From Magnetococcales bacterium (GTDB lineage Bacteria > Pseudomonadota > Magnetococcia > Magnetococcales > Magnetaquicoccaceae): DNA of 64,000 nt. The DNA is taken from contig JADGAR010000001.1 of NCBI GenBank assembly GCA_015231915.1, positions 55,284-119,283 of the forward strand. The letters run 5' to 3'. The position numbers and the translations under genes were made by a program. This document shows positions 10,430 to 45,330 of this stretch, piece by piece; position 1 is the first letter of the stretch; the number at the start of each line of letters is the position of its first letter. Under the pieces are notes generated by a model, which saw nothing but the letters and a program-made list of their open reading frames with translations, did no database searches and was not told the origin of the DNA.

Positions 10430-11641
10430 ATGCAACAGTCCGGACGCCCTGTGGCGCCCCGCATCGAACGTGTGACGGTCAAGAATTATCGCGCCCTGCA
10501 GGATGTCACTTTGCGGAATCTGTCCGCCGTGGCCGTATTGCTGGGAGCGAACGGCAGTGGCAAATCCACGGTGTTCGATGTATTCGCTTTCCTTTCCGAA
10601 TGCTTCCAGGAGGGCGGACTGCGCCGGGCATGGGAAAAGCGTGGCAGGTTCAAGGAACTGCGCAGCCGAGACCAGGAGGGCAACATCCTGATCGAACTGG
10701 CCTATCGGGAGCAGGCTGACGCGCCGGGAACGGCTTCCCCATTGATTACCTACCACCTTGAAATCCGCGAAGAAAAAGCACGCCCGGTGGTGGCATGCGA
10801 GTGGATGCGCTGGAAACGGCAACATCCTGGCGCGCCCTTCCATTTTTTGGAATTCAGGGATGGCAGCGGATCGGTGATCACTGGGAAACAACCTGAGGCG
10901 AAAGACCAACGCATCAGGCAGACCCTCGTCTCCCCCGACATCCTGGCGGTCGGCACGCTGGGCAATCTGGCGGAAAATCCCAGGGTGAAGGCGCTCAAGG
11001 AGTTCATTACCGGATGGTATCTCTCCTACCTGTCTGCCAATAATACCCGCAGCCTTCCCGAAGCAGGGCCACTGGAAAAATTGTCCCAAACCGGGGACAA
11101 TCTGGCCAATGTCATTCAGTACCTCAAGGAACAACATCCGGACAGAATGGATCGCGTCACGCGGACATTGTGTCGTCGTGTTCCCCGACTGGAGGGGGTG
11201 GATGCGGACATGCTCGCATCCGGGCATCTTCTGCTCAAGGTGAAGGATGCCCCCTTTTCCAGCGGCGTGCAGGCCAAATACATCTCCGATGGTACGCTCA
11301 AACTGCTTGCCTATCTGGTACTTCTCAATGATCCGTACCCGTCGCCTCTTATCGGGCTGGAGGAACCGGAAAACCACCTCCACCCCAAATTGCTCATCGA
11401 ACTGGCCGAAGAGTGCAACCAGACGGCAGGAGAGTCCCAGATGCTGGTGACGACCCATTCCCCGTTTTTTGTCAATGGCATGCAACCAGAGCAGGTATGG
11501 GCTTTGGGCCGGAGGGAGGATGGTTATACCCTGGCCAGACGTACCGCCGACATGCCAGGCATCCGGGAGATGATGCAGGCGGGCGCCAGGCTGGGCGACC
11601 TGTGGATGGAAGGTTATTTCGATATCGGCGACCCACGGTAG
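10430..11641 (+). CDS. AAA family ATPase of a DUF4276-type module (module 1)
   Basis: A ~403-residue SMC/RecF-like ATPase of the AAA_15/AAA_21 (OLD-like) group. Walker A is GANGSGKST (residues 39-47). Walker B with catalytic glutamate is [14 protein letters not shown], preceded by [11 protein letters not shown], and the H-loop is [10 protein letters not shown]. The start was chosen at ATG 10430, which follows a GGAGA site. It is clearly related to the ATPase of module 3 (43586); both end with a G..LG.LW..G.F pattern. In such pairs the ATPase is thought to control a TOPRIM-like partner, but here the partner is truncated (11642-11932). A defence role is inference. Confidence 0.82.
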
Positions 11642-11932
11642 AGCAACGGATGCGCGTCATTTACTTTGGATATCTCCGCACTCCGAGGGGCCTATCCACG
11701 CATCCCGGAGACCTTGGAGCAGCAACGGGGCTACCGGGATCCTGACGCGATACGTGGCGGGACCTGGGAGGCCCTGCATCGGGAATTGCAAAGACGGAAC
11801 TATTGCAACGATGTATTTCCAAAGATAGAAGTGGCCAGGAATATCGCCCGATCCATGAATCCGAACCACAACCGCTCCACCAGCTTCGCGGCCTTTCGAA
11901 GCGGCCTCGAAGCACTCCTCTCCCAGCCTTGA
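11642..11932 (+). pseudogene. Remnant of a DUF4276 gene (N-terminal half missing)
   Basis: This reading frame is open directly after the ATPase stop codon. From 11654 it reads ASFTLDISALRGAY and ends RSTSFAAFRSGLEALL. These match the C-terminal half of the intact partner of module 3, where ESFYLGDLTAV and RSVSFNALITGIRSL stand at the same places, with the Y.K..A..IA block between them present in both. The first ~90 residues, including the acidic TOPRIM-like motifs, are absent, and only a TTG at 11666 could start the piece. It is best read as a deletion product that may still be translated. Confidence 0.7.
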
Positions 11933-12098
11933 CCTCACGACAATCTGCGGGATCTCCTCTCGCGAATCTTTGCGCAGCTTGATTGACGATCCTTTTTGCC
12001 AATGCGCCATGCAGCACGATAAATTTTGGCACATTTATTTCATACAACATTCTCTGTATCTGAAATTGCACATCTTTCCCGTCAATGGACTTGAGCAA

Positions 12099-14474
12099 GT
12101 GGCCACCACGACTTTAAGCAAGAAGATCCAAGCTTCCGGGACGCGCACCGCCCAGCGCGCGGGGCAGGCTGCGGCCACCTTGCGGCGTGCCTGGGAAATC
12201 GCGGCCAGGGGGATGTTCAAGGAAGCGGTCCTGCTGTGGGAACATGCCCAGCGACTGGGCAGCGAGACCGCCCCCCCGCCGGAACTTCTGCTGACGTGGA
12301 TGATCAATGCCCGGCAGTACAACAAGGGGATCCATTTCTTCCTGGACAACGAGGCGGCCATCCGCTACGCACAGCCACGCGTCTGGACCACGGCGCGCGA
12401 GGTGTTCGCGGTCGTCGCTTTGACCAACGCTTCCGACAGTCACCCCCTGCCCCCCTGGAACCTGCCGCCGTGGAACCAGGCCGTCAACGCGCAAGGGGCG
12501 CTGCAGGCTTACTGCCGCAACGAACCACGCACCCTGCGCACCTGCCTGGTCCCCATCGATGCCACCTCCCCGTTCCGACCCCTGCGGGCGATCCTGGAAA
12601 GCCTGCTCCTGCCGGCAAGCGAAAAAGAGCGCATCGACGCCCTGCTGCACGACATCCCCGACCACTCCCCGTTCGCCCCGCTGCGGGTGATCGCCCAGGC
12701 GCGCACCCTCGACCCCATGGAACTGGCCCAGACCCTGCGCCGCATGCCCCCCATGGACCGTATCCCGACGGCCTTGCTGTGCGGCGTGGAGGAAAAACGG
12801 CTCAAGCTGTTGATCAAACTCAACGAGACCAGTCACCCGTGCCAGCAACTGGCCCTGATGCTCGGCCATGCCGATCTGCTGCCGTCCGCTGCGCTGCGCG
12901 CCGCCCTTTGGCCCATGCTCCCCGACTGCATGGAAGAGCGCGGTCGATTCGAAAAAAAATTCGGTCCCATACCGGAATTCGACCGCGAACGGCTCTTCGC
13001 CCTCCATCATGAGCGCCAGCAATCCAACTCGCGGGCCATCCACTACTGGCGCAAATGCATTTTGTTGCTGGAAAACGCCGCAGACGGGGACGAAACCCGC
13101 ATCCGGCTCTCCCTGCTGTATCATCGCCTGGCCACCATCGAACAGCGATACGCCAACCCCTCGACCCCCCAGATCGTCGAATTGCTGGAAAAAAGTCTGG
13201 GCTACGATCCCGGCAATCAGGCCATCTGGCTGGAGCTTTTGCACTGGAGAAACCGTCTCAAGCGCGACCGGCAGGGATTCTACCGCAGCGCGGATCAGGC
13301 GGCGCGACGCTTTCCCGGCAGCGTGGCCGTTCTGAGCATCGCCATGTCGGCGGCCATGGAAAAGGGGGCCTTCAAAAAGGCCTCGGGCCTGGCCAGACGG
13401 ATACAGAAGTCCAACGCCGCGCCGGATGATCTGCAGGAGACCCGTTTGACGGCCCTGGCCAATCATGCGCGCAAGCGGATCCTGGACGGTCATTTCGACC
13501 TGGCGCGCCGGGAGTTGACACGCGCCACCCGGATCCGTCCGGAAAAAAACTGGCGGTTGTGTCTGCTGGAGGCGATGCTGCATTTTCTGGAGGGCAATCC
13601 GCAACAGGCCGAATCCAGCCTGGAGGAGAGCCGCGCCAGCGCCGGTCCCCGGCAGGTCATGCATGCGGTGCGCGCCTTTCTGGAGGCGGTGGGATTGCAT
13701 TTGTCCCCCTTGCTGCTGGACCGTTTCCGGCACGCACTGGTCCGCTGCGATGCCCTGCCACCGGTGCGGGAGGAGGTGATCGGCATTGCCGACCTCATTG
13801 CCGGGATGCATCCCGGACAGCCGGGCGTCAGCGTGGAGATCATGGCGTTGCTGTCGGGATATTTCCGCAAGGCGGCGGTACTGGTCTACGACCAGGAGGA
13901 GATGCGCAAGGTGTGCCGCACCCTGGCCATGACCAAACGGTATCCCCTGTTGGCCCTGTACGGCAGGCTGGCCGAGACCCGCTGGCCGACGGAAGCGGTT
14001 TTCACCTATTTCCGCGCCTGCGGCCAGTGCGAGGGGGATGCCTGGCGTCTGAGCGACCGGGATTTCCATCTCCTGTTGCAGGCCGGGGAAGACCTGCTGG
14101 AGCAGGATCCGGAGGGTGCCGCCATGATCAACGGCCTGCTGGCCATTCCCGCCTCGCAGCGCCCGAGCGGACCATGGCACTCCATCCCGCTGTCGCCGGC
14201 CAAGATCCCCCGGCCCCTGGAACACAAGCTGTTGCGGGAGCTGCGCGCCCGGGTGCAGGAGGCCATGCGGGCCTATCCGGACGAGGCCGACACCCCGGCA
14301 TTCCGCAAACGGATGATCGATGTCCTGCTCCCCACCCCCTTCGGGCAGCGGGGACCGCTGGTGCTGGGCTATCTGATCGATCGCGTCTGCAAAGGCAACA
14401 ACCGGGAGACCCTCCGTCCGGCCCCACCCCCTGGCCCCCATCGCCAACTGGAACTGGATCTGTCACTGGAATGA
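12099..14474 (+). CDS. Large helical-repeat (TPR-like) protein of unknown function
   Basis: A ~790-residue soluble protein with no signal peptide and no catalytic motif I recognise. Helix-turn-helix units such as GMFKEAVLLWEHAQRL, GHFDLARRELTRATRIRP and LHFLEGNPQQAESSLEES look like degenerate TPRs. The start is uncertain: the frame is open from 11970, but the first ~43 residues look non-coding, so I chose the GTG at 12099; codon bias favours coding from there. The stop overlaps the start of a 72-residue gene by 4 bases. A near-full-length open frame on the opposite strand (12114-14447) is a by-product of G+C-rich codons. Confidence 0.65.
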   Translation: MATTTLSKKIQASGTRTAQRAGQAAATLRRAWEIAARGMFKEAVLLWEHAQRLGSETAPPPELLLTWMINARQYNKGIHFFLDNEAAIRYAQPRVWTTAREVFAVVALTNASDSHPLPPWNLPPWNQAVNAQGALQAYCRNEPRTLRTCLVPIDATSPFRPLRAILESLLLPASEKERIDALLHDIPDHSPFAPLRVIAQARTLDPMELAQTLRRMPPMDRIPTALLCGVEEKRLKLLIKLNETSHPCQQLALMLGHADLLPSAALRAALWPMLPDCMEERGRFEKKFGPIPEFDRERLFALHHERQQSNSRAIHYWRKCILLLENAADGDETRIRLSLLYHRLATIEQRYANPSTPQIVELLEKSLGYDPGNQAIWLELLHWRNRLKRDRQGFYRSADQAARRFPGSVAVLSIAMSAAMEKGAFKKASGLARRIQKSNAAPDDLQETRLTALANHARKRILDGHFDLARRELTRATRIRPEKNWRLCLLEAMLHFLEGNPQQAESSLEESRASAGPRQVMHAVRAFLEAVGLHLSPLLLDRFRHALVRCDALPPVREEVIGIADLIAGMHPGQPGVSVEIMALLSGYFRKAAVLVYDQEEMRKVCRTLAMTKRYPLLALYGRLAETRWPTEAVFTYFRACGQCEGDAWRLSDRDFHLLLQAGEDLLEQDPEGAAMINGLLAIPASQRPSGPWHSIPLSPAKIPRPLEHKLLRELRARVQEAMRAYPDEADTPAFRKRMIDVLLPTPFGQRGPLVLGYLIDRVCKGNNRETLRPAPPPGPHRQLELDLSLE

Positions 14475-14689
14475 AGACCCCGCCATCCCCCCCCGCCCAG
14501 GAACACGACGACCCCCTGCAACCCCTGCGGGAACGGTTGGCGCGTCAGCTTTTCGAGACCGAAACAATCGATTTGACCCCGCTGGTGGCCCATGGCCTCC
14601 TGAGCGCCCCGCCCACCATCCCCACGCCCGACCAGTTGTTGAAATCTTTGCAGAATGGGCTGAAGCCGTTTCAAATCGACCAGCCTTGA
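14471..14689 (+). CDS. Small hypothetical protein coupled to the TPR-like gene
   Basis: A 72-residue polar protein beginning MKTPPSPPAQEHDD and ending QNGLKPFQIDQP. Its ATG overlaps the stop of the upstream gene (ATGA), which implies translational coupling and a shared role. The middle (LQPLRERLARQLFETE) should be helical. No family recognised. Confidence 0.55.
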   Translation: MKTPPSPPAQEHDDPLQPLRERLARQLFETETIDLTPLVAHGLLSAPPTIPTPDQLLKSLQNGLKPFQIDQP

Positions 14690-14714
14690 CCGGATAAAAA
14701 TTCCATCAAAACGG

Positions 14715-14743
14715 TTGCGTTATTGATATCCATTCCGTATAAT
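14715..14743 (+). promoter_or_regulatory. Candidate sigma-70 promoter of the adhesin/secretion operon
   Basis: TTGCGT and a perfect TATAAT are separated by 17 bases, in an A+T-rich gap ahead of the giant adhesin gene. The expected start is near 14750, giving a leader of about 50 bases. Confidence 0.5.
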
Positions 14744-14801
14744 CAACACATCACCAAAAAAAAATCAGCGTATTTGTCAATACGGAAATTTCAGTCATTG
14801 A

Positions 14802-17800
14802 ATGGGTGCCATGAATATGTCTGTTCGGCCTTGGCAAACCCCTGCTTCCAGCCACGCCGTGGAACTTCCCGACGAGAATTTTCTCTTGCGCGGGGAGTTC
14901 ACCAGGCTTGGAGAGGACCTGATCGTCACCAGCCCGACCGGCGAACGGATCGTGATCGGCGGCTATTTCAGCAGCGACCCGCCCCCCGGCCTGACCACGG
15001 CCAACGGGTCGATCCTGTTGCCGGATACCGTCTCCCTGCTGCTGGCGCCCGATCCGACCCCGCAGGTGATGGTCGCCGGACCCACGCCGATTCCGGGGGC
15101 CAAGCCGATCGGCACGGTCAAATCCCTGGTCGGCAAGGTCACGGTCAAGGGAAGCGATGGCACGGATCGCACCCTGAACGAAGGAGAACCGGTCTACGCC
15201 CTCGATCACATCCGAACCGGCGAGGACGGACTGCTCCTGCTGACCTTTCTCGATGGCACCGAATTCCAGGTCGGACAGTCGGGCAGGATCACCCTGGACG
15301 CCTACCAGTTCGATCCGCAGGCCAAACAGGGAGCGTTCGCGGCCACGGTCGTACAGGGGGTGTTCCGTTACGCCAGCGGCGACATCGCCCATCTGCGGCC
15401 CGGCACCCACTCCGTGATCCGTACCCCGAGCGCCGAGATCGGCATCCGCGGCTCGGAACTCTCCGGCGAGGTGACCGGCAACGGCTCTACCACGGTGGTG
15501 CATACCCATGGGGTACTGGTGATCTCCGATCTCCAGGGCAAGGGTGCGGTGACTTTGCTCAATCCGGGCACGGCCACCGCCGTCTCGTTCGGCGGGGGCG
15601 CGCCGGAACCGGTGTTCCAGGCCCCGCGTCACCTCATGGAACGATTCAATGCCCAGTTGGACATCCAGGCGGTCAAGCAGCAGCGGGAATCCGCCACGGA
15701 CAAACCACCCGCCACCGAGGAGAACAAGCCTCAGGAACCTCAAAATGCGCCGCCCGCGCCTGAAGATGCCAATCCGCCCGCCGAAAACAACGCAGCACCA
15801 CCCCCCGCCGCCAACCCGGACCAGCCGGCCCAGGACACGCAACCCACCGGCGACCCCCCTGGCCAGGCAACAAGCAATCCGCTCCAGGACCTGGTGCTTT
15901 CGCAACCCTCCCCACCGGTCGATCCCTCCCCCGCCAGGACGGTCGCCCCGGATCCCCCAGCCGCGCCTTCCCCCCCCGTGCTTCCCCAGGTGCAGACCAC
16001 GCCACCCGCCATCGTCCCTCCGGTGGTGGTGATTCCACCGGTCAGCGCGGTCGCCACGCCCCAGCCGACACCACCCGCCACGACCACGACGGAACCGGTC
16101 TTCACCCCGACCACGACCACCACGACCACGGCAGAGGTCCCGACAACAACGACGACAACCACGACGACAACGACGACGACAACCACCACCCCCGTCACAG
16201 TCACCGTCACCACCAATGCCGCGCCCGCCGCCACCAATACCAGCACGGCGGAAAGCTTCACCGAGGATGCCGCCTCCGTGGCGCTGACCGACATCGTGAT
16301 CACCGACGCCGACAGTGCCAGCGTCACCGCCACCCTGACCCTCTCCAACACGCAAGCCGGCACCTTGACCACCGCCACCTCCGGGGCCGTGACCTCCACC
16401 TTCGCCGCCGGCGTCTGGAGCGCCAGCGGCGCGCTGGCCGATGTCAACACCTTGCTGGCCGGGGTGGCCTTCGTGCCGGCGGCCAACCATGATCAATCCT
16501 TCACCATCGCCACCTCGATGAGCGACGGAACGAGCAGCGTGACCGGCAACAAGGTCATCACCGTCACCCCGGTGGACGACCTGCCCACCGCAACCAGCCT
16601 GAACGTCGCGGAAAGCTTCACCGAAGACGCCGCAGCCGTTGCCCTGACCGACATCGTGGTCACGGAGTACGACAGCGCCGATGTCGTCACCGCCACCCTG
16701 ACGCTCTCCAACACGCAAGCGGGCACCCTGACCACCGCCACCTCCGGGGCCGTCACCTCCACCTTCAACGCCGGGCTGTGGAGGGCCAGCGGGGCGCGGG
16801 CCGATGTCAACACCCTGCTGGCCGGGGTGGCCTTCGTGCCGGCGGCCAACCATGATCAATCCTTCACCATCGCCACCGCGGTGGGCGACGGCATCACCTC
16901 CCTGACGGGCAGCAAAAGCATCACCGTCACCCCGGTCAACGACGCGCCTGCAGCAACCAACCTGAATACGGCACAAAGCCTCGACGAGGACGCCGCATCC
17001 GTCGATCTCGCGGACATCTGGGTCTCCGACGTGGACAACGCCACCGTCACCGTCACCCTGACACTCTCCGACACGACTGCCGGCACCTTGACCACCGCCA
17101 CCTCCGGGGCCGTGACCTCCACCTTCGCCGCCGGCGTCTGGAGCGCCAGTGGCGCGCTGGCCGATGTCAACACCTTGCTGACCGGGGTGGCCTTCGTGCC
17201 GGCGGCCAACCATGATCAATCCTTCACCATCGCCACCTCAGTCAACGACGGGATCACCGCCGTAACGGGCAGCAAAAGCGTCACCGTCACCCCGGTCAAC
17301 GACGCCCCCGCCGCCACCAACCTGAACGCGGCGCAAAACTACACCGAAGACACCCCCCTCCTGCTCACCCCCATCGTGATCACGGATGTGGACAGCGCCA
17401 ACGTCACCGCCATCCTGGCCTTCGCCTCGCCAGGGATCGGCACCCTCTCCACCGGAACCGTCAACGGCATCACCGCCACCTTCGACGGCACCACCTGGAC
17501 GGCCAGCGGCCCCAAGGCCGATGTCACGCAACTGCTCGCCGCAGTCACCTTCACGCCCACGGCGGATCATGCAGCCGATTTCTCCCTGTTGACCAAAATC
17601 GAGGACAACGCCACCGCATCAGTCACCGGCAGCAAGAACATCACCGCCATCCCGGTGAACGACGCCCCAGTCGCCTCCGCATCCTCCTCCAGCCTGGAGT
17701 ATCTGCAAGGGGATGCGGCAACCGTGGTGGACGGGGCATTGACCCTCTCCGACATCGACTCGACCCATCTGGCGGGCGCCACGATCACCATCAGCGGCTA

Positions 17801-33398: not shown

Positions 33399-34877
<1,479 letters not shown>

Positions 34878-34897
34878 CGACTGCTCCTTGTGAATGG

Positions 34898-36008: not shown

Positions 36009-36048
36009 GGCGCAAACCGATAGAGACTGTATGAAACGGGAAAAATGG

Positions 36049-36077: not shown

Positions 36078-36114
36078 CGTTCGATGCAACCCTATTGCGC
36101 ACAGGTTGAAAAGC

Positions 36115-36567: not shown

Positions 36568-36619
36568 TCGGGCGGGAATTACGATCCGGGGGCCAACAAG
36601 ACAGCGAAAAGGTCCAACC

Positions 36620-37702
36620 ATGACGATTGAATCATTTGAAATCAATGACAACGGATGGATATTGAACAGGACATCCTTTGGACCCCTGTCGCTGCTGGTT
36701 GGCGTTTCGGGTGTCGGAAAGACAAAAATAATCAAGGCGATCGAAAAAATCTGCAAGGCTGCCGTTAATGGCGCCGATCATGCCGCCGGATGCTCATGGA
36801 AAATTAGTTTGCAGATTGATGGGCATGAATATTATTGGGAGGGGGTGCTGGATGATTTTGGAGATCATTTTGAATCCGAAAAAATAATATTAGATGGTTA
36901 CAGGCTGGTCAATAGAAACTATATAACAGGCGAATTTCTATACAAGGACAACAAACTCCCAAAACTCAAATGGACAGAAAGTGCCATCAGTTTATTGAGA
37001 GACGAGGCGGATATAGCACCTTTAACACAATCATTAAATCAAATCATTATCAGCGATAATAATTTTTATTTTATCAATACAATTGATAATTCATATTTTT
37101 ATCTTGACAATATGACATCTCTAGACGATTTGCAGAAAGCGCCCCACATGCATCTATTAGTAAAAATTTGGACCTTGCAAGAGAAATTCAAAAACGATTT
37201 TGAAAATATAAAGCTTAAATTTAAAGAAATATTTCCTTTTACGGAAAATATCAAAATAAGAGCGTTCAAAGGAAATTCAACGCAATCAGGAATTTCTTAT
37301 ATTCTTTTCATAACAGAAAAAGAGACAAAAAAGGAAATACCAGGCCCCAATCTCTCTACAGGAATGTTGAAAACTTTAAAAATATTATTTGAACTGTCCC
37401 TGGCTCCAAAAGGAACGCTCTTTCTGATTGACGAATTCGAAAACAGCCTGGGAATCAATTGTCTGCCACAAATTGCCGAGACGATCAACGAGAGACAGGG
37501 AGACATCCAGTTCATCCTGACCAGCCACCACCCTTACGTAATTAATAATATCAACTGGAAGAACTGGAAACTGGTCACCAGGCACGGCAGCACGGTAACA
37601 GTTCACGATGCCTCCGACATCCCCGCATTAAATACCGCATCCACCATCGACCGTTTCGAGTTGCTGGTGAATTCCCCGGAATACGAGGACGGCATCGCAT
37701 GA
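36620..37702 (+). CDS. AAA family ATPase of a DUF4276-like module (module 2)
   Basis: A 360-residue OLD-like AAA ATPase. Walker A is GVSGVGKT (residues 28-35), Walker B is LFLIDEFENSLG, preceded by STGMLKTLKILFEL, and the H-loop is LTSHHPYVIN. The middle (~36840-37400) is strikingly A+T-rich and uses codons such as ATA and AAT that the neighbours avoid, a sign of horizontal transfer. It is only distantly similar to the ATPases of modules 1 and 3. The stop overlaps the next gene by 4 bases. Control of a nuclease-like partner is inferred from the arrangement. Confidence 0.8.
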   Translation: MTIESFEINDNGWILNRTSFGPLSLLVGVSGVGKTKIIKAIEKICKAAVNGADHAAGCSWKISLQIDGHEYYWEGVLDDFGDHFESEKIILDGYRLVNRNYITGEFLYKDNKLPKLKWTESAISLLRDEADIAPLTQSLNQIIISDNNFYFINTIDNSYFYLDNMTSLDDLQKAPHMHLLVKIWTLQEKFKNDFENIKLKFKEIFPFTENIKIRAFKGNSTQSGISYILFITEKETKKEIPGPNLSTGMLKTLKILFELSLAPKGTLFLIDEFENSLGINCLPQIAETINERQGDIQFILTSHHPYVINNINWKNWKLVTRHGSTVTVHDASDIPALNTASTIDRFELLVNSPEYEDGIA

Positions 37703-38403
37703 ATTTCTATCTCCTGGTCGAAGGGGACAGGACCGAAAAAAAATTATACCCCGCATGGCTATCCCTGACATTCGCCACAATGCGACAGGTATGGCGCATC
37801 GAAGATCTTCAGGGCGATCATTTTGTTGTTTTTGCCTTCAAGGGCCAGCCATTGACCCCAGACAAACTGACAAGACATGTCGAGGATGTCGTCTCCCTTG
37901 GACGCATCGACCATTTCTTCGTGATGGTCGATGCGGAAGAGGAAAGCTCTGCCGTGCGCCAACAAAGCATTGATCGGATCATCCGCAAAATCCCCGGCCA
38001 CGACACCATCCACTACTCCATCATCGTGCAAAATCGCTGCATCGAAACCTGGTTTCTCGGCAATCGCCGCTTCATGAAACGCAATCCACAAAGCGAGGAA
38101 CTGCGCGCCTATCAAAATCATTATCCCGTACACGAGCAGGACCCGGAACTGATGCCAAAAATGGCAAATTTCACGGGCACCCATGCCGGTTGGCACAAAA
38201 AATATCTTGAAGCAATATTTAAAGAACAAAACCTGACATACAACAAAGAACCCTATGAAGTTAATAAACCAAGTTATTTTTATCAGTTATATGAACGCGT
38301 CACGTCCACCCCCCACCTCCCGTCCCTCAAGCGGCTTCTCGATCAATGGCACGGCCTGGGCGGAACCCTGCCGGGTTACCCCGCGCCTTCTTCTCCGGCA
38401 TGA
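37699..38403 (+). CDS. DUF4276-like (TOPRIM-type) partner protein of module 2
   Basis: A 234-residue protein beginning MNFYLLVEGDRTEKKLYPAW, with the conserved glutamate (E8) of the EG.tE motif typical of TOPRIM-like proteins. The second acidic motif is FFVMVDAEEES (D78, E80), followed by NRCIETWFLGNRRF, the equivalent of the conserved R.lE.wyLGD segment. These acidic positions would bind metal, so nuclease activity is plausible but unproven. It starts in the ATPase stop (ATGA). The C-terminus becomes G+C-rich near 38300. It is longer and more diverged than the module 3 partner. Confidence 0.7.
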   Translation: MNFYLLVEGDRTEKKLYPAWLSLTFATMRQVWRIEDLQGDHFVVFAFKGQPLTPDKLTRHVEDVVSLGRIDHFFVMVDAEEESSAVRQQSIDRIIRKIPGHDTIHYSIIVQNRCIETWFLGNRRFMKRNPQSEELRAYQNHYPVHEQDPELMPKMANFTGTHAGWHKKYLEAIFKEQNLTYNKEPYEVNKPSYFYQLYERVTSTPHLPSLKRLLDQWHGLGGTLPGYPAPSSPA

Positions 38404-38546
38404 GATCCACCCCTCGATGACGCACGCCGCGAAAAAATCGAAATCACGCCTTTACTCGGAGACGCATTTAAGGGAAAATGAGTGGTTCAGCCAGCCGAAA
38501 CCAAACGGCGGCGACCGGCATCCCGAGTCAAACAGGAGAGATGACC

Positions 38547-39653
38547 ATGGCGTGGAACGACAATAGCGGGGGACAAGGCCCCTGGGGAAACATGGGAGGC
38601 ACTCCCCCACAGCCACCGGACATCGAGCAGATCATCCGGTTGCTCAAGGACCGCATCGGCCCCCATCGGCCTGCAAACCAGAAAATCTGGCCGATCCTGA
38701 TCGCCATCGCCCTGGCCGTCTGGATGGCCACCGGCATCTACGTGGTGGGACCGGACGAAAACGGCGTGGTGGTCCGCTTCGGTCGCCATGTGGAAACCAC
38801 AGAACCCGGCCCCCACTGGCGCCTGCCCTACCCCATCGCCCAGGTCTTCAACCCGAAGGTCACCAAGGTGGAACGCATCGAACTCGGCTACCGCACCCGC
38901 AGCCGTTCCGAGGGACGCGCCAGCGCCGAGGAGATCGACGTGCCAGGGGAATCCCTCATGCTCACCGGTGACGAAAACATCATCGACATCGACATGAGCG
39001 TCCAGTACCGCATCAAGGAAGGCGGCGCGGCCAATTATCTCTTCAATCTGCGCAACCCCCCCTCCGACCGCCACAAGGCGGTTCGCGATGCCTCGGAGTC
39101 GGCGATCCGCCAGGTGATCGGCAGCAACGCCATCGACAGCGCCCTCACCGCAGGCAAGGAAAAAATCCAGTCCGATGCCAAACTGACCATCCAGAAAATC
39201 CTCGACAGCTACAACGGCGGCATCCTGATCCTGACGGTTCAACTCCAGAAAGTCTCCCCGCCGCCGGAAGTGGTGCATGCCTTCAAGGACGTGGCCAGCG
39301 CCCGCGAGGACCGGGAACGGGCCATCAACGAGGCGCAGGGATACGCCAACGACATCCTCCCCAAGGCCAAGGGCGAAGCCGCCAAGCAGATCCAGGAGGC
39401 CGAAGCCTACCGTACCGCCAAGGTGACCCGCGCCGAGGGTGACACCCATCGCTTCCTGGCACTGCTGAAAGAGTACGACAAGGCCAAGGAGATCACCGAA
39501 TCCCGACTCTACCTGGAGGCCATGGAGAACGTCATGGGCGGTGTCAACAAGGTGATCGTCAATCCCCAGGCAGGCCGCAACATTCTGCCCTACCTGCCGT
39601 TGGCCGGGCCGCAGCCCCATCCCGCCAAAAGCCCCAAGGGAGATCCCCAATGA
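38547..39653 (+). CDS. hflK: HflK, FtsH protease modulator subunit
   Basis: A ~368-residue SPFH-domain membrane protein. It starts MAWNDNSGGQGPWG (family-typical), has one helix (PILIAIALAVWMATGIYVVG), then the SPFH/band 7 domain (ENGVVVRFGRHVETTEPGPH) and a long helical region (EDRERAINEAQGYANDILPKA). With HflC it forms the complex around FtsH that controls membrane protein quality control. I chose ATG 38547 since AGGAG stands 8 bases before it. It overlaps hflC by 4 bases. The 143-base gap upstream shows no gene. Confidence 0.94.
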   Translation: MAWNDNSGGQGPWGNMGGTPPQPPDIEQIIRLLKDRIGPHRPANQKIWPILIAIALAVWMATGIYVVGPDENGVVVRFGRHVETTEPGPHWRLPYPIAQVFNPKVTKVERIELGYRTRSRSEGRASAEEIDVPGESLMLTGDENIIDIDMSVQYRIKEGGAANYLFNLRNPPSDRHKAVRDASESAIRQVIGSNAIDSALTAGKEKIQSDAKLTIQKILDSYNGGILILTVQLQKVSPPPEVVHAFKDVASAREDRERAINEAQGYANDILPKAKGEAAKQIQEAEAYRTAKVTRAEGDTHRFLALLKEYDKAKEITESRLYLEAMENVMGGVNKVIVNPQAGRNILPYLPLAGPQPHPAKSPKGDPQ

Positions 39654-40528
39654 ACGTCAATCTCGCCAAGGGAATCGGCTTTCTCGTGGTGGCCGTCCTG
39701 GTACTCCTCTCCCAGTCGGCCTATACCCTCCCCCAGTGGCGGCAGGCCCTGGTCGTGCAACTGGGCAAACCGGTCAAGCCGGCCATCACCGATCCCGGTC
39801 TCCACTTCAAGATCCCGTTCCTGCAGGATGTCCATTTCTTCGACAAACGGATGCTCGAATTCGACCAGGAACCCCAGGAGATCCTCTCCGCCGACAAAAA
39901 GAACCTCAAGGTGGACAGCTACTCCCGCTGGCGGATCACGGATCCTTTGAAGTTCTATCAGACCGTGCGGGACGAAAACGGCGCCACCGACCGTCTCAAC
40001 GACATCATCTACTCCAATCTGCGCGAGGTGCTCGGCCAGTTCAAGATGATGGAGATCGTCTCCGGATCCCGCTCCGATCTGACCCAGCGGATTCGCGAAC
40101 AGGCCAATGAGCAGGCCGTCAAGTACGGCATCGAGATCGTGGACGTGCGCATCAAGCGAACCGACCTGCCGGCGGAGAACTCCAAGGCGGTCTACAAACG
40201 GATGCAGACCGAACGGGAACGCCAGGCCAAGCAGTACCGGGCCGAAGGCGAAGAGGAGGCGGTCAAGATCCGCTCCAAGGCCGCCAAGGAACGGGAGATC
40301 CTGCTCGCCGAGGCCTACCGCTCCGCCCAGGAGGTCCGGGGCGACGGGGATGCGGAATCGGCCAGGATCTATGCGGACGCCTATCGGCAGGATCCACGCT
40401 TCTACGAATTCACGCGCACCCTGGAGGTCTATGCCAAGACCCTTGGACAAGAGACCACCACCCTGGTCTTGGAGCCGTCGGGCTTTTTCCGTTACCTGCA
40501 ACAGGGGGCGGGACCGATCGGTCGCTGA
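39650..40528 (+). CDS. hflC: HflC, FtsH protease modulator subunit
   Basis: A 292-residue SPFH-domain protein with an N-terminal membrane helix (GFLVVAVLVLLSQSAYTLPQ), then HFKIPFLQDVHFFDKRML, RWRITDPLKFYQTV and a C-terminal helix with RQAKQYRAEGEEEAVKIRSK. It starts in the hflK stop (ATGA). Both are needed for the HflKC assembly. Confidence 0.95.
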   Translation: MNVNLAKGIGFLVVAVLVLLSQSAYTLPQWRQALVVQLGKPVKPAITDPGLHFKIPFLQDVHFFDKRMLEFDQEPQEILSADKKNLKVDSYSRWRITDPLKFYQTVRDENGATDRLNDIIYSNLREVLGQFKMMEIVSGSRSDLTQRIREQANEQAVKYGIEIVDVRIKRTDLPAENSKAVYKRMQTERERQAKQYRAEGEEEAVKIRSKAAKEREILLAEAYRSAQEVRGDGDAESARIYADAYRQDPRFYEFTRTLEVYAKTLGQETTTLVLEPSGFFRYLQQGAGPIGR

Positions 40529-40540
40529 GAGACGGACGCC

Positions 40541-40726
40541 ATGAAAGCGTTTCTGAGCGCATTCGGCCTGATGCTGATCATGGAAGGGATGCCCTATTTC
40601 GTGGCGCCCGAACGCATGCGGCTGTGGGTGATCAAGATCGTCGAACTGCCGGATGCGATCTTGCGACGCACGGGTTTCGCGCTCATGGCCATCGGCTTGT
40701 TGGTGATCTGGCTGGCGAGAGGTTGA
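40541..40726 (+). CDS. DUF2065 family small membrane protein
   Basis: A 61-residue protein with two hydrophobic segments (AFLSAFGLMLIMEGMPYF and GFALMAIGLLVIWLARG). The small size, the EGMPYFVAPERM motif and the position right after hflC fit DUF2065 (YjeT-type). Probably an accessory inner-membrane protein; function unknown. Confidence 0.85.
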   Translation: MKAFLSAFGLMLIMEGMPYFVAPERMRLWVIKIVELPDAILRRTGFALMAIGLLVIWLARG

Positions 40727-40731
40727 CGACC

Positions 40732-41352
40732 ATGGATACCGGCTATCCCCTGGATTTCACCGACCCGTTCCACTCCCTGACGCGCGGCTTTCGCGGGGAG
40801 GAGCCGCGGGATCTGAGCGGCGTGATTCTGGAACTGGCCACCCTGGCCCACCGTTCGACCCCCTGGACCGCCCACGGCATTTTTCCGTCCGGCACCCTCC
40901 GGGAACTGGGAGGAGCCGGCACGGTGGACGGACCGGTGGAGTTGCATGTGCTGGCCACGCCGATCATTCGGGAGGACAGACCCCGCGTCCGGGTGTTGGG
41001 CCGGGGCTGGTGCCGGATCCGGCTGGCCTGCTCACGCTGTCTGACGGAATTCCCTCTCGACCTGGAGGCGACCATCGACGCCTGCTTCGCCGCTGGCAAG
41101 GACCCGGCGATGAAGAACAAGCGGTGGCAGATCGAGGAAGATGTGGTCTTTCTGCCGGATGGCGTCCTGAGGATGAAACATCTCGTGGAGGAGGAGCTGC
41201 TGCTCACCCTGCCCATGAATCCCCTGTGCATGGAAACGTGCGCCGGGTTGTGCGCCGGTTGCGGCGCGGATTTGAACCACACCCCCTGTGCTTGTCGCAA
41301 GGCGAAACCGTCCGGTCCATTCGCCGTGCTGAGCCAATTTCACAAAATGTAA
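40732..41352 (+). CDS. yceD: YceD/DUF177 family protein (23S rRNA accumulation)
   Basis: A 206-residue protein with the family pattern: an N-terminal beta region (PVELHVLATPIIRED), the CSRCL motif followed by acidic sequence (ACSRCLTEFPLDLEATID), and a C-terminal cysteine cluster (CAGLCAGCGADLNHTPCAC) that could bind zinc. DUF177 genes typically precede rpmF, as here, 10 bases away. It is linked to 23S rRNA and ribosome synthesis in E. coli. The ATG at 40732 is 5 bases after the DUF2065 stop. Confidence 0.88.
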   Translation: MDTGYPLDFTDPFHSLTRGFRGEEPRDLSGVILELATLAHRSTPWTAHGIFPSGTLRELGGAGTVDGPVELHVLATPIIREDRPRVRVLGRGWCRIRLACSRCLTEFPLDLEATIDACFAAGKDPAMKNKRWQIEEDVVFLPDGVLRMKHLVEEELLLTLPMNPLCMETCAGLCAGCGADLNHTPCACRKAKPSGPFAVLSQFHKM

Positions 41353-41362
41353 GGAGCGAACC

Positions 41363-41548
41363 ATGGCAGTTCCAAAGAAGAAATCCTCGTCCTCCCGTGG
41401 CGGTCACCGGCGTTCCCACAATGCCCTGAAGGCACCTGCCCTCTCATTGTGCCCCAACTGTCAGGAGCATCGTCCCCCGCATCGGGTCTGCCCGCACTGC
41501 GGCTGGTACAAGGGCAAGGAAGTGATGACGGTCAAGGGTAACGCCTGA
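41363..41548 (+). CDS. rpmF: 50S ribosomal protein L32
   Basis: A 61-residue protein: MAVPKKKSSSSRGGHRRSH and a four-cysteine zinc ribbon (CPNC..HRVCPHCGWYKG). Length and motif are those of bL32. An AAGGAGCG ribosome site precedes the ATG. It sits between yceD and plsX, a common arrangement coupling ribosome and fatty acid synthesis genes. Confidence 0.96.
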   Translation: MAVPKKKSSSSRGGHRRSHNALKAPALSLCPNCQEHRPPHRVCPHCGWYKGKEVMTVKGNA

Positions 41549-41573
41549 GACCCCCAGCGTCTGGCCCGCCGCC

Positions 41574-42599
41574 ATGCCCGTCCGTATCGCCCTGGATGCC
41601 ATGGGGGGTGACAACGCCCCCGGCGCGCCGGTGGAAGGGGCGATCCTTGCCGCGCGCGAACACCCGGAGGTCGAGTTCATTCTGGTCGGCAGGTCGGATG
41701 CCATCGCAACCGAACTGGCCCGTCACGACGGCGGGAAGCAGCGGCTGCGGATCCATCCGGCCAGCGAGGTGGTGGGGATGGCGGAAAAGCCTTCCGTGGC
41801 CCTGCGCACCAAGAAGGACTCTTCCATGCGGGTGGGGGCCAACCTGGTCAAGGCCGGGGAGGCGGAAGCCTTCGTCTCCGCCGGGAATACCGGCGCCCTG
41901 ATGGCCACGGCCCGTTATGTCCTCAAGACCCTGCCCGGCGTGGACCGTCCTGCCATCGCCGGGATGCTCCCTTCCATCAAGGGGCAGACCCTGATGCTGG
42001 ACGTGGGCGCAAACGTGGATTGCACCGCAGAGCATCTCGGCCAGTTCGCCATGATGGGCAAGGTGTATGCCACGGCGGTGTTGGGGTTGCCGCGTCCCAG
42101 GATCGGCCTGCTCAACATCGGCGAGGAGGAGATCAAGGGCAACGAGGTGGTCAAGGAGGCGTCCGAGATCCTCCGCAGCCGTCTCGGGGAGCGGTTCGTG
42201 GGCAACGTGGAGGCGTCGGACATCTTCATGGGCGATGTGGATGTGGTGGTGTGCGACGGCTTCGTGGGCAACGTGAGTCTCAAGACCACGGAGGGGTTGG
42301 CGCGCCTGCTGACCCATTTCCTGCGTGAGTCGTTCGGTGCCTCCTTGTGGACGAAGCTCGGTTATCTGGCGGCGCGTCCCGCCCTGCGAACCTTCCGTGA
42401 TCGGGTGGACCCGCGCAAGTACAACGGCGCCATCCTGTTGGGGCTTAACGGAATCGTGGTCAAGAGTCACGGTTCCGCCGACCCGTTTGCGTTCAGCCGG
42501 GCCATTGGCAAGGCCGTGGGTCTGGTGGAGAACCGTGTCAACGAAAAGATCCGGCGAGAGGCCCAGGCGCTCGTCGCGGACGAGGGGAACGCAGCATGA
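41574..42599 (+). CDS. plsX: Phosphate acyltransferase PlsX
   Basis: A 341-residue enzyme converting acyl-ACP to acyl-phosphate in phospholipid synthesis. It starts [20 protein letters not shown], has [17 protein letters not shown] and ALLLD-like [16 protein letters not shown], and ends with [15 protein letters not shown]. It overlaps fabH by 4 bases, a classic plsX-fabH unit. Confidence 0.96.
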
Positions 42600-43564
42600 C
42601 GATGCCCAGGGCAAGGATCACGGGAACCGGATCCTATCTGCCGGAAAAAAGGGTGACCAATCACGATCTGGCGCGGATGGTGGATACCTCCGACGAGTGG
42701 ATTCGGGAGCGGACCGGGATCATCGAACGGCGCATGGCTGCTGAAGGCGAGACCACCTCGGATCTTGCGACGCAGGCGGCCAGGAAGGCCCTGGAGGCGG
42801 CGGATTTGCAGGTGGGGGATCTGGATCTCATCCTGACGGCCACCACCACGCCGGATCTGATCTTCCCGTCCACTGCCGCCATTGTGCAGCACAAGCTGGG
42901 CGGGAGCGCGAGCCGCATGCCTGCCTTCGACATTCAGGCGGTCTGTTCCGGGTTCATCTATGCGTTGTCGATCGCGGATCAGTTCATTCGCACCCGTGCC
43001 TGTCAGCGGGTTCTGGTGATCGGGGCCGAGACCCTCTCCCGCATCCTGGACTGGAACGACCGGGGGACTTGCATTCTGTTCGGCGACGGGGCCGGGGCCG
43101 TGGTCCTGGAGGCGGACAAGGATGGCAAGCGCGGGATCCTTTCCACCCATCTGCACGCCGACGGCTCCCAGGCGGATCTCCTGTACACCAGCGGCGGGGT
43201 CTCCAAGGGCAACCTGGGGGCGATCCGCATGCTGGGCAACGAGGTGTTCAAGCAGGCGGTCAGGGCACTGGAAGGCAGCGTTGACGAATGTCTGGAGGCC
43301 AACGGCCTCACCAAGGAGCAGATCGACTGGCTGGTGCCGCATCAGGCCAACATCCGGATCATCCAGAACACGGCCAAACGGCTGGGCATGCCCATGGAGC
43401 GGGTGGCGGTGACCGTGGAGCGCCACGGCAACACCTCGGCGGCGAGCGTGCCTTTGGCCCTGGACGAGGTGGTGCGCGCCGGGCGCATTCAACCCGGCCA
43501 CCGGGTCCTGATGGTGGCCTTCGGCGGCGGCTTCACCTGGGGGTCGGCGCTGGTGCGGTGGTAA
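42596..43564 (+). CDS. fabH: 3-oxoacyl-ACP synthase III (FabH)
   Basis: A 322-residue thiolase-fold enzyme that starts fatty acid synthesis by condensing acetyl-CoA with malonyl-ACP. The catalytic cysteine is in [14 protein letters not shown], the histidine in VPHQANIRI and the asparagine in [10 protein letters not shown]. The start ATG lies in the plsX stop; a second ATG two codons on is possible. It ends the plus-strand operon that began at hflK. Confidence 0.96.
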
Positions 43565-43585
43565 AAGAATCCATGAGGCACAAAG

Positions 43586-44782
43586 ATGAAAATAGAATCA
43601 ATACGCCTCAAAAATTATAAGCTATTTAATGAAATTGAATTAAATCACTTGCCAAAATTTTGTCTGCTGATCGGAGCCAACGGCACCGGCAAGACCACTC
43701 TGTTTGATGTATTTGGTTTTCTAAAGGATTGCCTGACTTATAATGCAACCAAGGCAATACAAAACCGAGGCGGTTTTGACGAGATGATCAGTCGAGGCGC
43801 ACGGGAACCGGTCATTCAGATCGAAATCAAATACCGGATGCGTATCACTGGAAAAGAGCGCTTGATAACCTATTTTCTCGCCATTACCCGTGAAGAGCGA
43901 CAAATCATTATCGAGAGGGAGATTCTCCGTTACAAACGGGGCAGATACGGAATGCCATTCCATTTTCTGGATTTTTCCCGTGGCGAAGGATGGGCCATCG
44001 TCAACGAAGAAGATTTCGACAAGACGGAAGAGGAACTGACTCGCGAAAATCAGTCGCTGGGCAAGGCGGACATCCTGGCTGTCAAAGGCGTGGGACAATT
44101 TGCGCGCTTCAAGGCTGCCAACGCCTTGCGCCAACTCATCGAAAATTGGCACATATCCGACTTTCACATCAAATTGGCACGCGGCAGCAAGGACATTTCC
44201 GGCGATGCCGATCACCTCTCGGTGACCGGGGATAATCTGCAACTGGTGGCCAATCGGATGTTCGAAAATGATACCCAAGATGGAACATTCAGTAAAATCA
44301 TTGAACAGATGAAACGACGCGTCCCAGGCATTGAATCCATTGAACCGGAACAGACGCGGGATGGTCGTCTGCTCCTGAAGTTCAAGGATGGGGCTTTTCA
44401 GGATCCGTTCATCGACAAGTACGTCTCGGACGGGACAATCAAAATGTTCGCCTACCTGATTTTGCTCCACGATCCGCAACCACATCCGTTATTGTGTATT
44501 GAAGAACCGGAAAATCAACTCTATCCGAAACTGTTGTGGGAACTGGCAGAAGAGTTCCGTGCCTATGCGCAGCGAGGCGGACAGGTATTCGTCTCGACCC
44601 ACTCCCCTGCCCTTCTCAATGCTGCCCGTGTGGAGGAGGTTTTCTGGCTGGTCAAAAAAAACGGCTACACGCAAGTCAAATGTGCCCAGGACGACCCCCA
44701 GATCTCTGCCTACATGGCGCAGGGCGATCAGATGGGGGCGTTGTGGGAGCAGGGCTTTTTCACGGATGCGGATCCGCCATGA
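43586..44782 (+). CDS. AAA family ATPase of a DUF4276 module (module 3)
   Basis: A 398-residue AAA_15/AAA_21-type ATPase. Walker A is GANGTGKTT (residues 30-38), Walker B is LLCIEEPENQLYPK after SDGTIKMFAYL, and the H-loop is STHSPALLNA. It resembles the module 1 ATPase across its length (for instance PFHFLDFSRG versus [10 protein letters not shown]). It starts 21 bases after fabH and overlaps its DUF4276 partner by 4 bases. The 5' part is more A+T-rich than fabH. The role is inferred: an ATP-controlled effector pair. Confidence 0.83.
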   Translation: MKIESIRLKNYKLFNEIELNHLPKFCLLIGANGTGKTTLFDVFGFLKDCLTYNATKAIQNRGGFDEMISRGAREPVIQIEIKYRMRITGKERLITYFLAITREERQIIIEREILRYKRGRYGMPFHFLDFSRGEGWAIVNEEDFDKTEEELTRENQSLGKADILAVKGVGQFARFKAANALRQLIENWHISDFHIKLARGSKDISGDADHLSVTGDNLQLVANRMFENDTQDGTFSKIIEQMKRRVPGIESIEPEQTRDGRLLLKFKDGAFQDPFIDKYVSDGTIKMFAYLILLHDPQPHPLLCIEEPENQLYPKLLWELAEEFRAYAQRGGQVFVSTHSPALLNAARVEEVFWLVKKNGYTQVKCAQDDPQISAYMAQGDQMGALWEQGFFTDADPP

Positions 44783-45330
44783 CCATGCTGGTATTCCTGC
44801 TGGAAGAGCCTTCCGCCCGCGAGATGTTGCAGGCCACTCTGCCCAGGCTGTTGCCGGAGACTGCGTTCCAGTGCATCGTGTTCAAGGGCAAACAGGATCT
44901 GGAAAAACAGCTGCTCCCCAAACTGCGCGGCTGGCTTACCCCGGATTCCCGTTTCATCGTCCTCAGAGATCAGGACTCCGGCGATTGCGTGCGGATCAAG
45001 GCCCATCTGCGCAGCCTTTGCCAGCAGGCTGGCCGCCACGATGTCCTGATCCGGATCGCCTGCCGGGAACTGGAAAGCTTTTATCTGGGCGACTTGACGG
45101 CGGTGGAAAAAGGATTGGGGCTGACCGGTCTGGCGCGTCATCAGAATACGGCCAGATTTCGCGATCCCGACCACTTGGCGAATCCTGCCTTGGAATTGGC
45201 GACCCTGACCAGGGAACGCTATCAAAAAGTCTTGGGATCCCGTGCCATTGCCCCACATCTCGCTCTTGACACCAACCGATCCGTCAGTTTCAACGCCCTC
45301 ATCACCGGCATCAGGTCCCTGCATCCATGA
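44779..45330 (+). CDS. DUF4276 family protein (TOPRIM-like effector candidate)
   Basis: A 183-residue protein with the full DUF4276 pattern: LLEEPSAREML (acidic), CIVFKGKQDLEKQLLPKLRG, FIVLRDQDSGDC (D64, D66), IRIACRELESFYLGDLTAVE and RSVSFNALITGIRSL. The glutamate and DxD positions resemble the metal-binding residues of TOPRIM nucleases. It starts in the ATPase stop codon (ATGA) and its own stop overlaps the next gene (FecR lipoprotein) by 4 bases. It serves here as the intact reference for the truncated copy at 11642. Confidence 0.83.
   Translation: MTMLVFLLEEPSAREMLQATLPRLLPETAFQCIVFKGKQDLEKQLLPKLRGWLTPDSRFIVLRDQDSGDCVRIKAHLRSLCQQAGRHDVLIRIACRELESFYLGDLTAVEKGLGLTGLARHQNTARFRDPDHLANPALELATLTRERYQKVLGSRAIAPHLALDTNRSVSFNALITGIRSLHP

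What the first reader, a model, noticed from the sequence alone, without database searches (positions are those of the whole stretch)
10430..45330. Three separate AAA ATPase/DUF4276 modules inserted between housekeeping operons
Modules at 10430-11932, 36620-38403 and 43586-45330 each consist of an OLD-like AAA ATPase directly followed by a DUF4276 or DUF4276-like gene (in the two intact cases with an ATGA overlap). They lie between mutL and the TPR gene, between a cNMP-binding gene and hflK, and between fabH and a FecR gene. The partners have acidic positions (E and DxD or DxE) resembling TOPRIM nucleases. ATPase plus TOPRIM pairing is known in OLD, Gabija and PARIS-type defence, but DUF4276 pairs are not, to my knowledge, characterised. 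Modules 1 and 3 are paralogous; module 2 is remote.
Basis: partly seen in the sequence, partly recalled or inferred. Interest (0 to 1): 0.8.

Follow-up and report, generated by a model that had tools for sequence, protein, structure and literature searches.

The report
Solo ATPase–nuclease defence gene pairs
Three small two-gene cassettes between housekeeping genes of a bacterium of the order Magnetococcales each pair an ATPase with a probable metal-dependent nuclease (one now broken); they belong to already catalogued candidate anti-virus systems, and their evolution suggests that the nuclease is a toxin held in check by the ATPase.

Summary
The observation largely holds. Modules 1 and 3 are ATPase/DUF4276 pairs; module 1's DUF4276 is an 88-codon remnant; module 2's partner is RloB/AbiLii-like, not Pfam DUF4276. 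Two novelty caveats: PADLOC lists the pair as candidate defence HEC-01, and RloB-type pairs have published toxin–antitoxin evidence. New here: (1) the only DUF4276 columns above 80% in 103 rows (E9, D64, E99, K150) match, in order and partly in spacing, the two-metal ligands and lysine of OLD nucleases; the AlphaFold model's first Foldseek match is an OLD Toprim domain (E 0.01). (2) In one-sided decay DUF4276 is the broken gene in 8 of 9 curated pairs, as expected of a toxin. (3) Module 3 and a FecR-like gene were inserted between fabH and purU, adjacent in 5 of 5 checkable congeners. (4) Between sister genomes, modules 2 and 3 at the same sites have dS 0.48–2.07 against 0.17–0.42 in 11 nearby genes, so alleles were probably swapped in place. 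(5) Close relatives of module 3 lie inside Hma defence operons, but immediate neighbours in its own order show no visible excess of defence families. Best reading: ATPase-gated, OLD-type Toprim abortive-infection effectors. Nothing was assayed; the target (tRNA or DNA) is open.

The parts
10430..11641 (+). Module 1 ATPase (403 aa), frame intact, Walker and ABC motifs present as read by eye; HEC-01 type
   Evidence: PADLOC PDLC04182 504.2 bits
11666..11932 (+). Module 1 DUF4276 remnant, C-terminal part only (profile 110-192 of 192); lacks the region of the conserved E, D and E
   Evidence: PADLOC PDLC04202 99.7 bits over profile 118-202
36620..37702 (+). Module 2 ATPase (360 aa)
   Evidence: PADLOC best AbiLi 64.8 bits
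37699..38403 (+). Module 2 RloB/AbiLii-like partner (234 aa), Toprim-like residues E8, D78xE80, E116; ATGA overlap with the ATPase
43586..44782 (+). Module 3 ATPase (398 aa), HEC-01 type
   Evidence: PADLOC PDLC04144 678.7 bits
44779..45330 (+). Module 3 DUF4276 (183 aa), probable OLD-type Toprim nuclease: E9, D64xD66, E97xE99, K150
   Evidence: PADLOC PDLC04143 271.5 bits
45327..45995 (+). FecR-like gene that lies with module 3 between fabH and purU in this genome and its sister; best matches lie elsewhere in other congeners
   Evidence: Pfam FecR 20.1 bits, below the cut-off 24
42596..43564 (+). fabH, left edge of the module 3 insertion
   Evidence: fabH directly followed by purU in G034, G041, G069, G073, G093
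45992..46861 (+). purU, right edge of the insertion of module 3 plus FecR-like gene

Best explanation
Modules 1 and 3 are chromosomal, solitary copies of the candidate defence pair HEC-01 (module 1 now broken); module 2 is a distantly related RloB/AbiL-type pair. In each, an OLD-like ABC ATPase (sensor and brake) is encoded with a small Toprim nuclease (effector). In the resting cell the ATPase holds the nuclease inactive; an infection cue changes the ATPase and frees the nuclease, which cuts nucleic acid with two metal ions and stops the infection, probably at the cost of the infected cell. Shown here: gene order, co-inheritance, Toprim/OLD-type conserved residues, a compatible predicted fold for module 3's partner, insertion of module 3, high synonymous divergence at a shared site, asymmetric decay, Hma context of relatives. 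Inferred: nuclease activity, the brake, the cue, the target and immunity itself.
For: Family: M3 ATPase 678.7 bits and partner 271.5 bits to HEC-01 models. Active site: in 103 DUF4276 rows the only columns above 80% are E9 (0.87), D64 (0.99), E99 (0.99), K150 (0.88); BpOLD uses E400, D455, E508 and K562 (passages of PMC6755086), with the same 55-residue step from E to D. Fold: Foldseek first hit BpOLD Toprim, E 0.01, prob 0.94; VIA Z 8.9, 8.6, 8.5, 8.1 over 165, 162, 160, 164 of 183 residues for four OLD entries. Pairing: DUF4276 lies downstream of the ATPase in 89 of 89 intact pairs (same strand and under 400 bases apart were conditions of the selection), distance matrices r = 0.94, 0 of 1000 permutations reach it. 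Decay: effector broken, ATPase intact in 8 of 9 curated one-sided cases (p = 0.0008 if breaks follow gene length, 0.02 at even odds). Context: Aeromonas caviae HmaA-HmaB-[pair]-HmaC and Marinicaulis HmaB-[pair]-HmaC; G053 pair, effector broken, before a DUF499 gene; Synechocystis pSYSM pair behind a cysteine desulfurase gene and near a 'DNA phosphorothioation-associated putative methyltransferase'. Precedent: two Toprim_OLD toxins, one RloB-type, neutralised by AAA partners in E. coli (PMC10440598, passages and section 11 part 1). Divergence at shared sites: dS 2.07, 1.10, 1.52, 0.48 in module genes against 0.17-0.42 in 11 nearby genes. Horizontal spread: M3A groups with Planctomycetota and Marinicaulis rows.
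Against: No activity was tested. In PMC10440598 the one AAA-neutralised pair screened against a coliphage collection, of another toxin fold, gave no hit. Immediate neighbours in the order are not visibly richer in PADLOC hits than control genes. The AlphaFold model rests on 4 sequences (mean pLDDT 81); Foldseek had no match at E 0.001 or better, and the OLD match has TM 0.44; on Z the OLD rows are tied with unrelated folds (up to 8.6 over 82-117 residues). The E404 position is Ala in module 3, E in 38 and D in 16 of 103 rows; the step from D to the second E differs (53 in OLD, 35 here). Module 2's model is poor (pLDDT 53) and its fold search inconclusive. One of nine decay cases goes the other way, with RloB-type pairs 2 of 12. 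Few viral relatives were found (no PHROG for the partners).
Confidence: 0.68

Rival explanations
1. The effector is a tRNase, as AriB in PARIS: release of the DUF4276 Toprim cuts specific tRNAs and stops translation.
For: AriB is a two-metal Toprim tRNase activated by an ATPase sensor (passages of PMC12409363); an AAA-neutralised toxin of another fold targeted translation (PMC10440598). The split two-gene arrangement is the same.
Against: No AriB model is among the 12 PADLOC families matched by module 3's partner. The conserved set resembles OLD, whose members cut DNA; but OLD and AriB sites both resemble that of the RNA-cutting enzyme RNase M5, so residues cannot decide.
Confidence: 0.3
2. 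The effector is a DNase that nicks or degrades DNA, as OLD and Gabija do, with the ATPase as nucleotide-sensing gate.
For: Order and partly spacing of E, D, E, K as in BpOLD; first Foldseek match BpOLD; GajA further down at Z 6.9 and 6.8.
Against: No DNA-binding part was identified; the E404 equivalent is not conserved.
Confidence: 0.4
3. The pairs are selfish addiction modules: toxin-antitoxin cassettes that persist by harming cells that lose them, with no immune function.
For: Solitary copies at many different sites, one-sided decay of the effector, no visible excess of defence neighbours in the order.
Against: Relatives inside Hma operons and near phosphorothioation genes; dS above 1 with low dN/dS at shared sites suggests exchange of working alleles.
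Confidence: 0.2
4. The pairs serve the host itself (DNA repair or cell cycle), as claimed for the archaeal OLD protein Cran1.
For: Cran1 is an OLD-family nickase with an essential cell-cycle role (passages of PMC12796447); DUF4276 occurs in 38 of 48 genomes of the order.
Against: Positions differ between genomes, copies decay, congeners lack module 3 at its site, and the ATPase tree mixes phyla.
Confidence: 0.06
5. The divergence of modules 2 and 3 between sister genomes is fast evolution in place, not allele replacement.
For: dS above 1 is near saturation; M3B has only 0.48, close to the highest of the other genes, 0.42; in module 3 identity recovers inside the ATPase gene, not at the module's end.
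Against: Identity falls abruptly at the left border of both modules (from 97-99% to about 65-75% within 200 bases) and, for module 2, recovers at the right one; dN/dS stays 0.10-0.26.
Confidence: 0.2

Closest known systems
HEC-01 (PADLOC-DB 2.0.0; an 'Hma embedded candidate')
   Same: Same ATPase and DUF4276 families, order and adjacency; 504.2 and 678.7 bits for the ATPases of modules 1 and 3, 271.5 bits for module 3's partner; relatives of module 3 lie between HmaB and HmaC
   Different: In the window the pairs stand alone between housekeeping genes; module 1's effector is a remnant
AbiL of Lactococcus / RloA-RloB
   Same: Module 2: ATPase plus RloB-like partner with Toprim-type residues
   Different: RloB score 22.9 bits is under Pfam's cut-off 31.5; AbiLii only 22.5 bits
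OLD class 2 nucleases and Gabija GajA
   Same: Toprim-like fold with further helices in the model, E/D/E/K set, ABC-type ATPase
   Different: ATPase and Toprim on separate genes; no helicase partner of the GajB kind beside the modules in the window; E404 equivalent not conserved
PARIS (AriA-AriB), OLD class 4
   Same: Split ATPase and Toprim genes
   Different: ATPases of modules 1 and 3 score 88 and 100.5 bits to AriA against 504.2 and 678.7 to HEC-01; no AriB among the partner's 12 matched families
AAA-neutralised Toprim_OLD toxin-antitoxin pairs (NetFlax D29 with D44/D60)
   Same: Two-gene ATPase/Toprim logic with the ATPase as antitoxin (PMC10440598)
   Different: I could not test whether DUF4276 is one of these nodes

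Membership tests
HEC-01 (modules 1 and 3) | ATPase of the HEC-01 models | tested here: met
   M1 504.2 bits, M3 678.7 bits
HEC-01 (module 3) | Adjacent intact DUF4276 partner of the HEC-01 models | tested here: met
   271.5 bits; ATGA overlap
HEC-01 (module 1) | Adjacent intact DUF4276 partner | tested here: not met
   only profile 110-192 remains; module 1 is a decayed member, not a working one
HEC-01 | Embedding in an Hma operon (origin of the name) | tested here: not met
   not seen beside the modules in the window; met in Aeromonas caviae L115 and Marinicaulis L050. I take it as the origin of the name, not as a requirement on the proteins
HEC-01 | Anti-phage activity | not testable with these tools
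   a PMC12988326 passage says several HECs incl. HEC-06 are active; the passages seen say nothing on HEC-01
HEC-01 (module 2) | HEC-01 model matches of both genes | tested here: inconclusive
   ATPase 44.6 bits to HEC-01A, 64.8 to AbiLi; partner 21.2 bits to HEC-01B, 22.5 to AbiLii
RloB / AbiL (module 2) | RloB profile over Pfam's gathering score | tested here: not met
   22.9 of 31.5 bits; hence 'RloB-like', not filed as RloB
Toprim superfamily (DUF4276) | Conserved E after strand 1 and D(xD) after strand 3, alternating strand/helix fold | tested here: met
   E9 in 90, D64 in 102, position 66 D in 50 and E in 17 of 103 rows; topology in the predicted model
OLD class 2 | Metal B ligands and lysine (E404, T506xE508, K562) | tested here: inconclusive
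   E99 in 102, K150 in 91, E97 in 79 of 103 rows; position 13 E in 38, D in 16, Ala in module 3; no superposition at residue level was available
OLD classes 1-3 | ATPase and Toprim in one polypeptide | tested here: not met
   separate genes
PARIS | AriB-type partner | tested here: inconclusive
   no AriB among 12 families at E up to 0.1; I did not check that the library holds AriB models (AriA and AriAB it does)
Type II toxin-antitoxin | Effector toxic, ATPase neutralises | not testable with these tools
   only indirect: 8 of 9 one-sided decays hit the effector

The most novel reading that the evidence does not exclude
HEC-01 is a nomadic immunity cassette: a toxin-like OLD-type Toprim plus ATPase brake that inserts, alone and outside islands, into tight housekeeping operons, and whose alleles, or parts of them, are then exchanged in place between species by recombination, so that one chromosomal site becomes a slot for interchangeable defence alleles. 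It would be a further, split class of OLD system with a new partner domain family and its own mode of spread.
Probability: 0.25. Interest if true: 0.65.

Novelty: new member of a known kind. Interest (0 to 1): 0.42.

Why it matters
DUF4276 is a family of unknown function in Pfam. The match of its most conserved columns to the OLD two-metal site gives named residues to mutate, and the decay asymmetry tells which gene to express as toxin and which as antidote. It also shows candidate defence pairs that a search for defence islands could miss, because in this window they stand alone between housekeeping genes.

Tried and rejected
Rejected: 'three DUF4276 modules' (module 2's partner has no DUF4276 hit in Pfam). 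Not supported: a defence-island setting in the own order. Of 162 immediate neighbour frames of 86 intact pairs 132 were scanned (limits of 900 aa and of total residues) and no PADLOC family matched more than 3 of 132 (25 of 73 families shown); of 134 control frames over 4 kb away I scanned 124, dropping 10 by hand (pair genes and their neighbours in L109, three frames at module 2 in L053, one long frame in L059), and no family matched more than 1 of 124 (22 families). Two control frames (L109) are also in the neighbour set, the frame caller is crude, and distinct proteins hit cannot be totalled, so this is a rough test. Rejected: plasmid pSYSA as the home of the Synechocystis homologue; the record is pSYSM.

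Led nowhere: sequence search in solved structures (repeat-driven hits to TAL effectors and others, no reliable match); viral relatives (no match in phages; scans gave 0, 1 and 1 loci); a search by eye for shared ends of a mobile unit (I saw no common flanking sequence among 22 copies, apart from the DUF499 gene start behind L050, L115 and, as a short stretch, L062; no DUF499 match at L062); a PIN-like partner of two other ATPases (Pfam PIN 14.9 bits, under the cut-off, for one; none for the other); fold of module 2's partner (inconclusive); papers on Magnetococcales defence (one off-topic paper). Empty sites for modules 1 and 2 could not be shown: the fetched stretches of congeners showed neither mutL beside the TPR gene nor the cNMP gene beside hflK.

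Counting notes: one search listed 136 clusters (91 both intact). I curated by hand: L102 moved from 'effector broken' to 'both broken', L051 added (about 22 residues of DUF4276 left), L147, L160 and L193 set aside as cut by contig ends. Of 14 clusters with an ATPase counted intact and no DUF4276 found, I looked behind L051, L091 and six others; L127, L137 and L151 show no partner and were not counted. L129, L072 and the two TGA cases could be assembly errors; without L129 and L072 it is 7 of 7. With RloB-type pairs (G053 and G133 effector broken, G002 ATPase broken) it is 10 of 12. The 103 rows are 102 distinct frames recruited by an iterated profile plus the window's own protein, which may be in twice. 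In one search my lysS query had a wrong frame; its rows were not used.
Full report
1. What is there. Module 1: ATPase 10430-11641, then a DUF4276 piece at 11666-11932 that matches only positions 110-192 of the 192-position profile. Module 2: ATPase 36620-37702 and a 234-codon partner at 37699-38403. Module 3: ATPase 43586-44782 and DUF4276 at 44779-45330. The overlaps in modules 2 and 3 are ATGA. Pfam gives RloB, below its cut-off, for module 2's partner and no DUF4276. No Rfam family reaches its gathering score in the window.

2. Where it is. The window is part of a 4.0 Mb, 133-contig assembly. The nearest named record found is a contig of a Magnetococcales metagenome bin, WMHbin3, as long as G097's contig C1 and, like it, 78-79% identical in module 3's ATPase; I treat G097 as the sister genome. 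The own genome holds four DUF4276 genes. DUF4276 was found in 60 of 299 genomes of the phylum sample and in 0 of 14 control genomes; counted by me from that table, in 38 of 48 genomes of the own order (own genome included) and in 22 of 251 others. Matches to module 3's ATPase occur in 35 of 41 relatives, to module 2's partner in 12 of 41.

3. Already catalogued. PADLOC models named HEC-01 match module 3 (678.7 and 271.5 bits) and module 1 (504.2 bits; fragment 99.7 bits). A passage of PMC10855318 expands HEC as 'Hma embedded candidates'; one of PMC12988326 says several HECs, including HEC-06, were active against viruses; one of PMC12724379 lists HEC-01 in Desulfovibrio piger. The primary preprint is not held. 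The word DUF4276 gave 0 papers. PMC12839542 (passages) states that Toprim-linked OLD-ABC operons were described earlier. PMC10440598 (passages and part 1 of section 11) reports Toprim_OLD toxins neutralised by AAA partners and relates RloB to OLD_TOPRIM; its one phage screen of such a pair, with another toxin fold, gave no hit.

4. The partner as a nuclease. In 22 diverse sequences E9, D64 and E99 are invariant. In 103 rows the only columns above 80% are E9, D64, E99 and K150. In BpOLD the metal A ligands are E400, D455 and D457, metal B is held by E508 with E404 and T506, and K562 is catalytic (passages of PMC6755086). Order agrees; spacing agrees for E to D (55 and 55), nearly for the second E to K (54 in OLD, 51 here), not for D to the second E (53 and 35). 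The E404 position is E in 38 and D in 16 of 103 rows and Ala in module 3. The AlphaFold model of module 3's partner (4 sequences, pLDDT 81, pTM 0.76) has BpOLD as first Foldseek hit (E 0.01, probability 0.94, TM 0.44; none at E 0.001 or better). In the second look four OLD entries align over 160-165 of 183 residues at Z 8.1-8.9, beside PH0156 (2p62, Z 9.1, 163 residues); rows of unrelated folds with Z 8 or more reach 8.6 over 82-117 residues, so on Z they are tied and coverage makes the case. Module 2's partner has E8, D78xE80 and E116, but its model is poor.

5. One unit. In 89 of 89 intact pairs DUF4276 lies behind the ATPase (same strand and under 400 bases were conditions of the selection), and the two distance matrices correlate at 0.94, which 0 of 1000 permutations reach.

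6. Decay. Among 136 clusters, 91 have both genes intact. Curated one-sided breaks: effector broken with intact ATPase in 8 (module 1, L051, L069, L070, L129, L163, L175, L179), ATPase broken with intact effector in 1 (L072). If breaks followed gene length the chance is 0.0008; at even odds 0.02. Of RloB-type pairs G053 and G133 have a broken effector, G002 a broken ATPase. Rows are not fully independent and metagenome bins carry errors. In the sister only about 69 residues of module 1's ATPase are found at that site.

7. Insertion and divergence in place. fabH is followed directly by purU in 5 of 5 congeners where this can be seen (G034, G041, G069, G073, G093); in G133 and G149 the contig ends just behind fabH, G177 and G185 were not fetched there. 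In this genome and its sister, module 3 and a FecR-like gene lie between them in overlapping or abutting frames. Yet the sister's module genes differ far more than most others: dS 2.07 and 1.10 (module 2), 1.52 and 0.48 (module 3), against 0.17-0.42 in 11 other genes; dN/dS 0.10-0.26 shows constraint. For module 2 DNA identity drops at both borders (about 36.57 and 38.35 kb). For module 3 it drops at the left border (43.56 kb) and recovers inside the ATPase gene (about 44.6 kb), staying at 78-90% through DUF4276 and the FecR-like gene. I read this as replacement of whole or part alleles by older, divergent ones; saturation makes the exact values uncertain.

8. Spread and context. Twenty loci with module-3-type pairs from the order share hardly any other frame (at most two other loci for any frame); of 132 immediate neighbours 11 fall into 5 shared groups. 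The ATPase tree needs 5 changes between Magnetococcales and others, at least 3 forced by well supported branches; module 3's ATPase groups with Planctomycetota and Marinicaulis rows (97/96 and 100/97, with a warning on long branches near the outgroup). The Pfam families most often met among the neighbours are ordinary ones (Radical SAM in 5, ABC transporter and RlmN in 3 of 132; 25 of 156 families shown), and defence families are not visibly commoner than among control genes. But outside the order the pair lies in defence operons: Aeromonas caviae (a 4.9 Mb record filed under plasmids) HmaA 2208 bits, HmaB 1773, pair, HmaC 1563; Marinicaulis HmaB end, pair, HmaC start. In the order, G053 has the pair, effector broken, before a DUF499 gene. 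In Synechocystis pSYSM it stands near phosphorothioation-associated genes, in Pseudanabaena among others.

9. Verdict. The best reading is an ATPase-gated Toprim effector of the abortive-infection type. Filing: module 3 HEC-01; module 1 a decayed HEC-01; module 2 RloB/AbiL-like, not filed as RloB. The kind is known; the residue match, the decay asymmetry and the divergence in place are, as far as my searches go, not described for it, but the main preprint and subscription papers could not be read.

Noticed in passing
45327-45995: A FecR-like gene lies between fabH and purU together with module 3 in this genome and its sister; in other congeners its best match lies elsewhere.
   Followed up: partly
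L093 5953-6988: In the sister genome about 1 kb separates module 2's partner from hflK, where the window has about 140 bases.
   Followed up: no
L122 after 4588; L194 before 2966 and L196 before 1943 (- strand): ATPases of the same wide family with other partners: an RloB-like frame by eye (no Pfam hit) and two PIN-like frames by eye (PIN 14.9 bits, below cut-off, for one; none for the other).
   Followed up: partly
L175 1739-1983: A DUF4276 gene in G113 is split by about 240 bases of inserted sequence.
   Followed up: no
L091 5282-6523: A further ATPase of the family in the own genome (contig C100) with no DUF4276 found behind it; an MNT-type nucleotidyltransferase-like frame (my own reading) lies about 0.7 kb on, on the other strand.
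   Followed up: no
PDB 2p62 (PH0156): An uncharacterised archaeal structure is the top second-look match to module 3's partner (Z 9.1, 163 aligned) and among the first rows for module 2's poor model (Z 7.7); it may be a Toprim relative.
   Followed up: no
PADLOC PDLC04143 / PDLC04144: Judging by what they match, the A and B labels of these two HEC-01 models are the reverse of the others: here A is the DUF4276 and B the ATPase.
   Followed up: no
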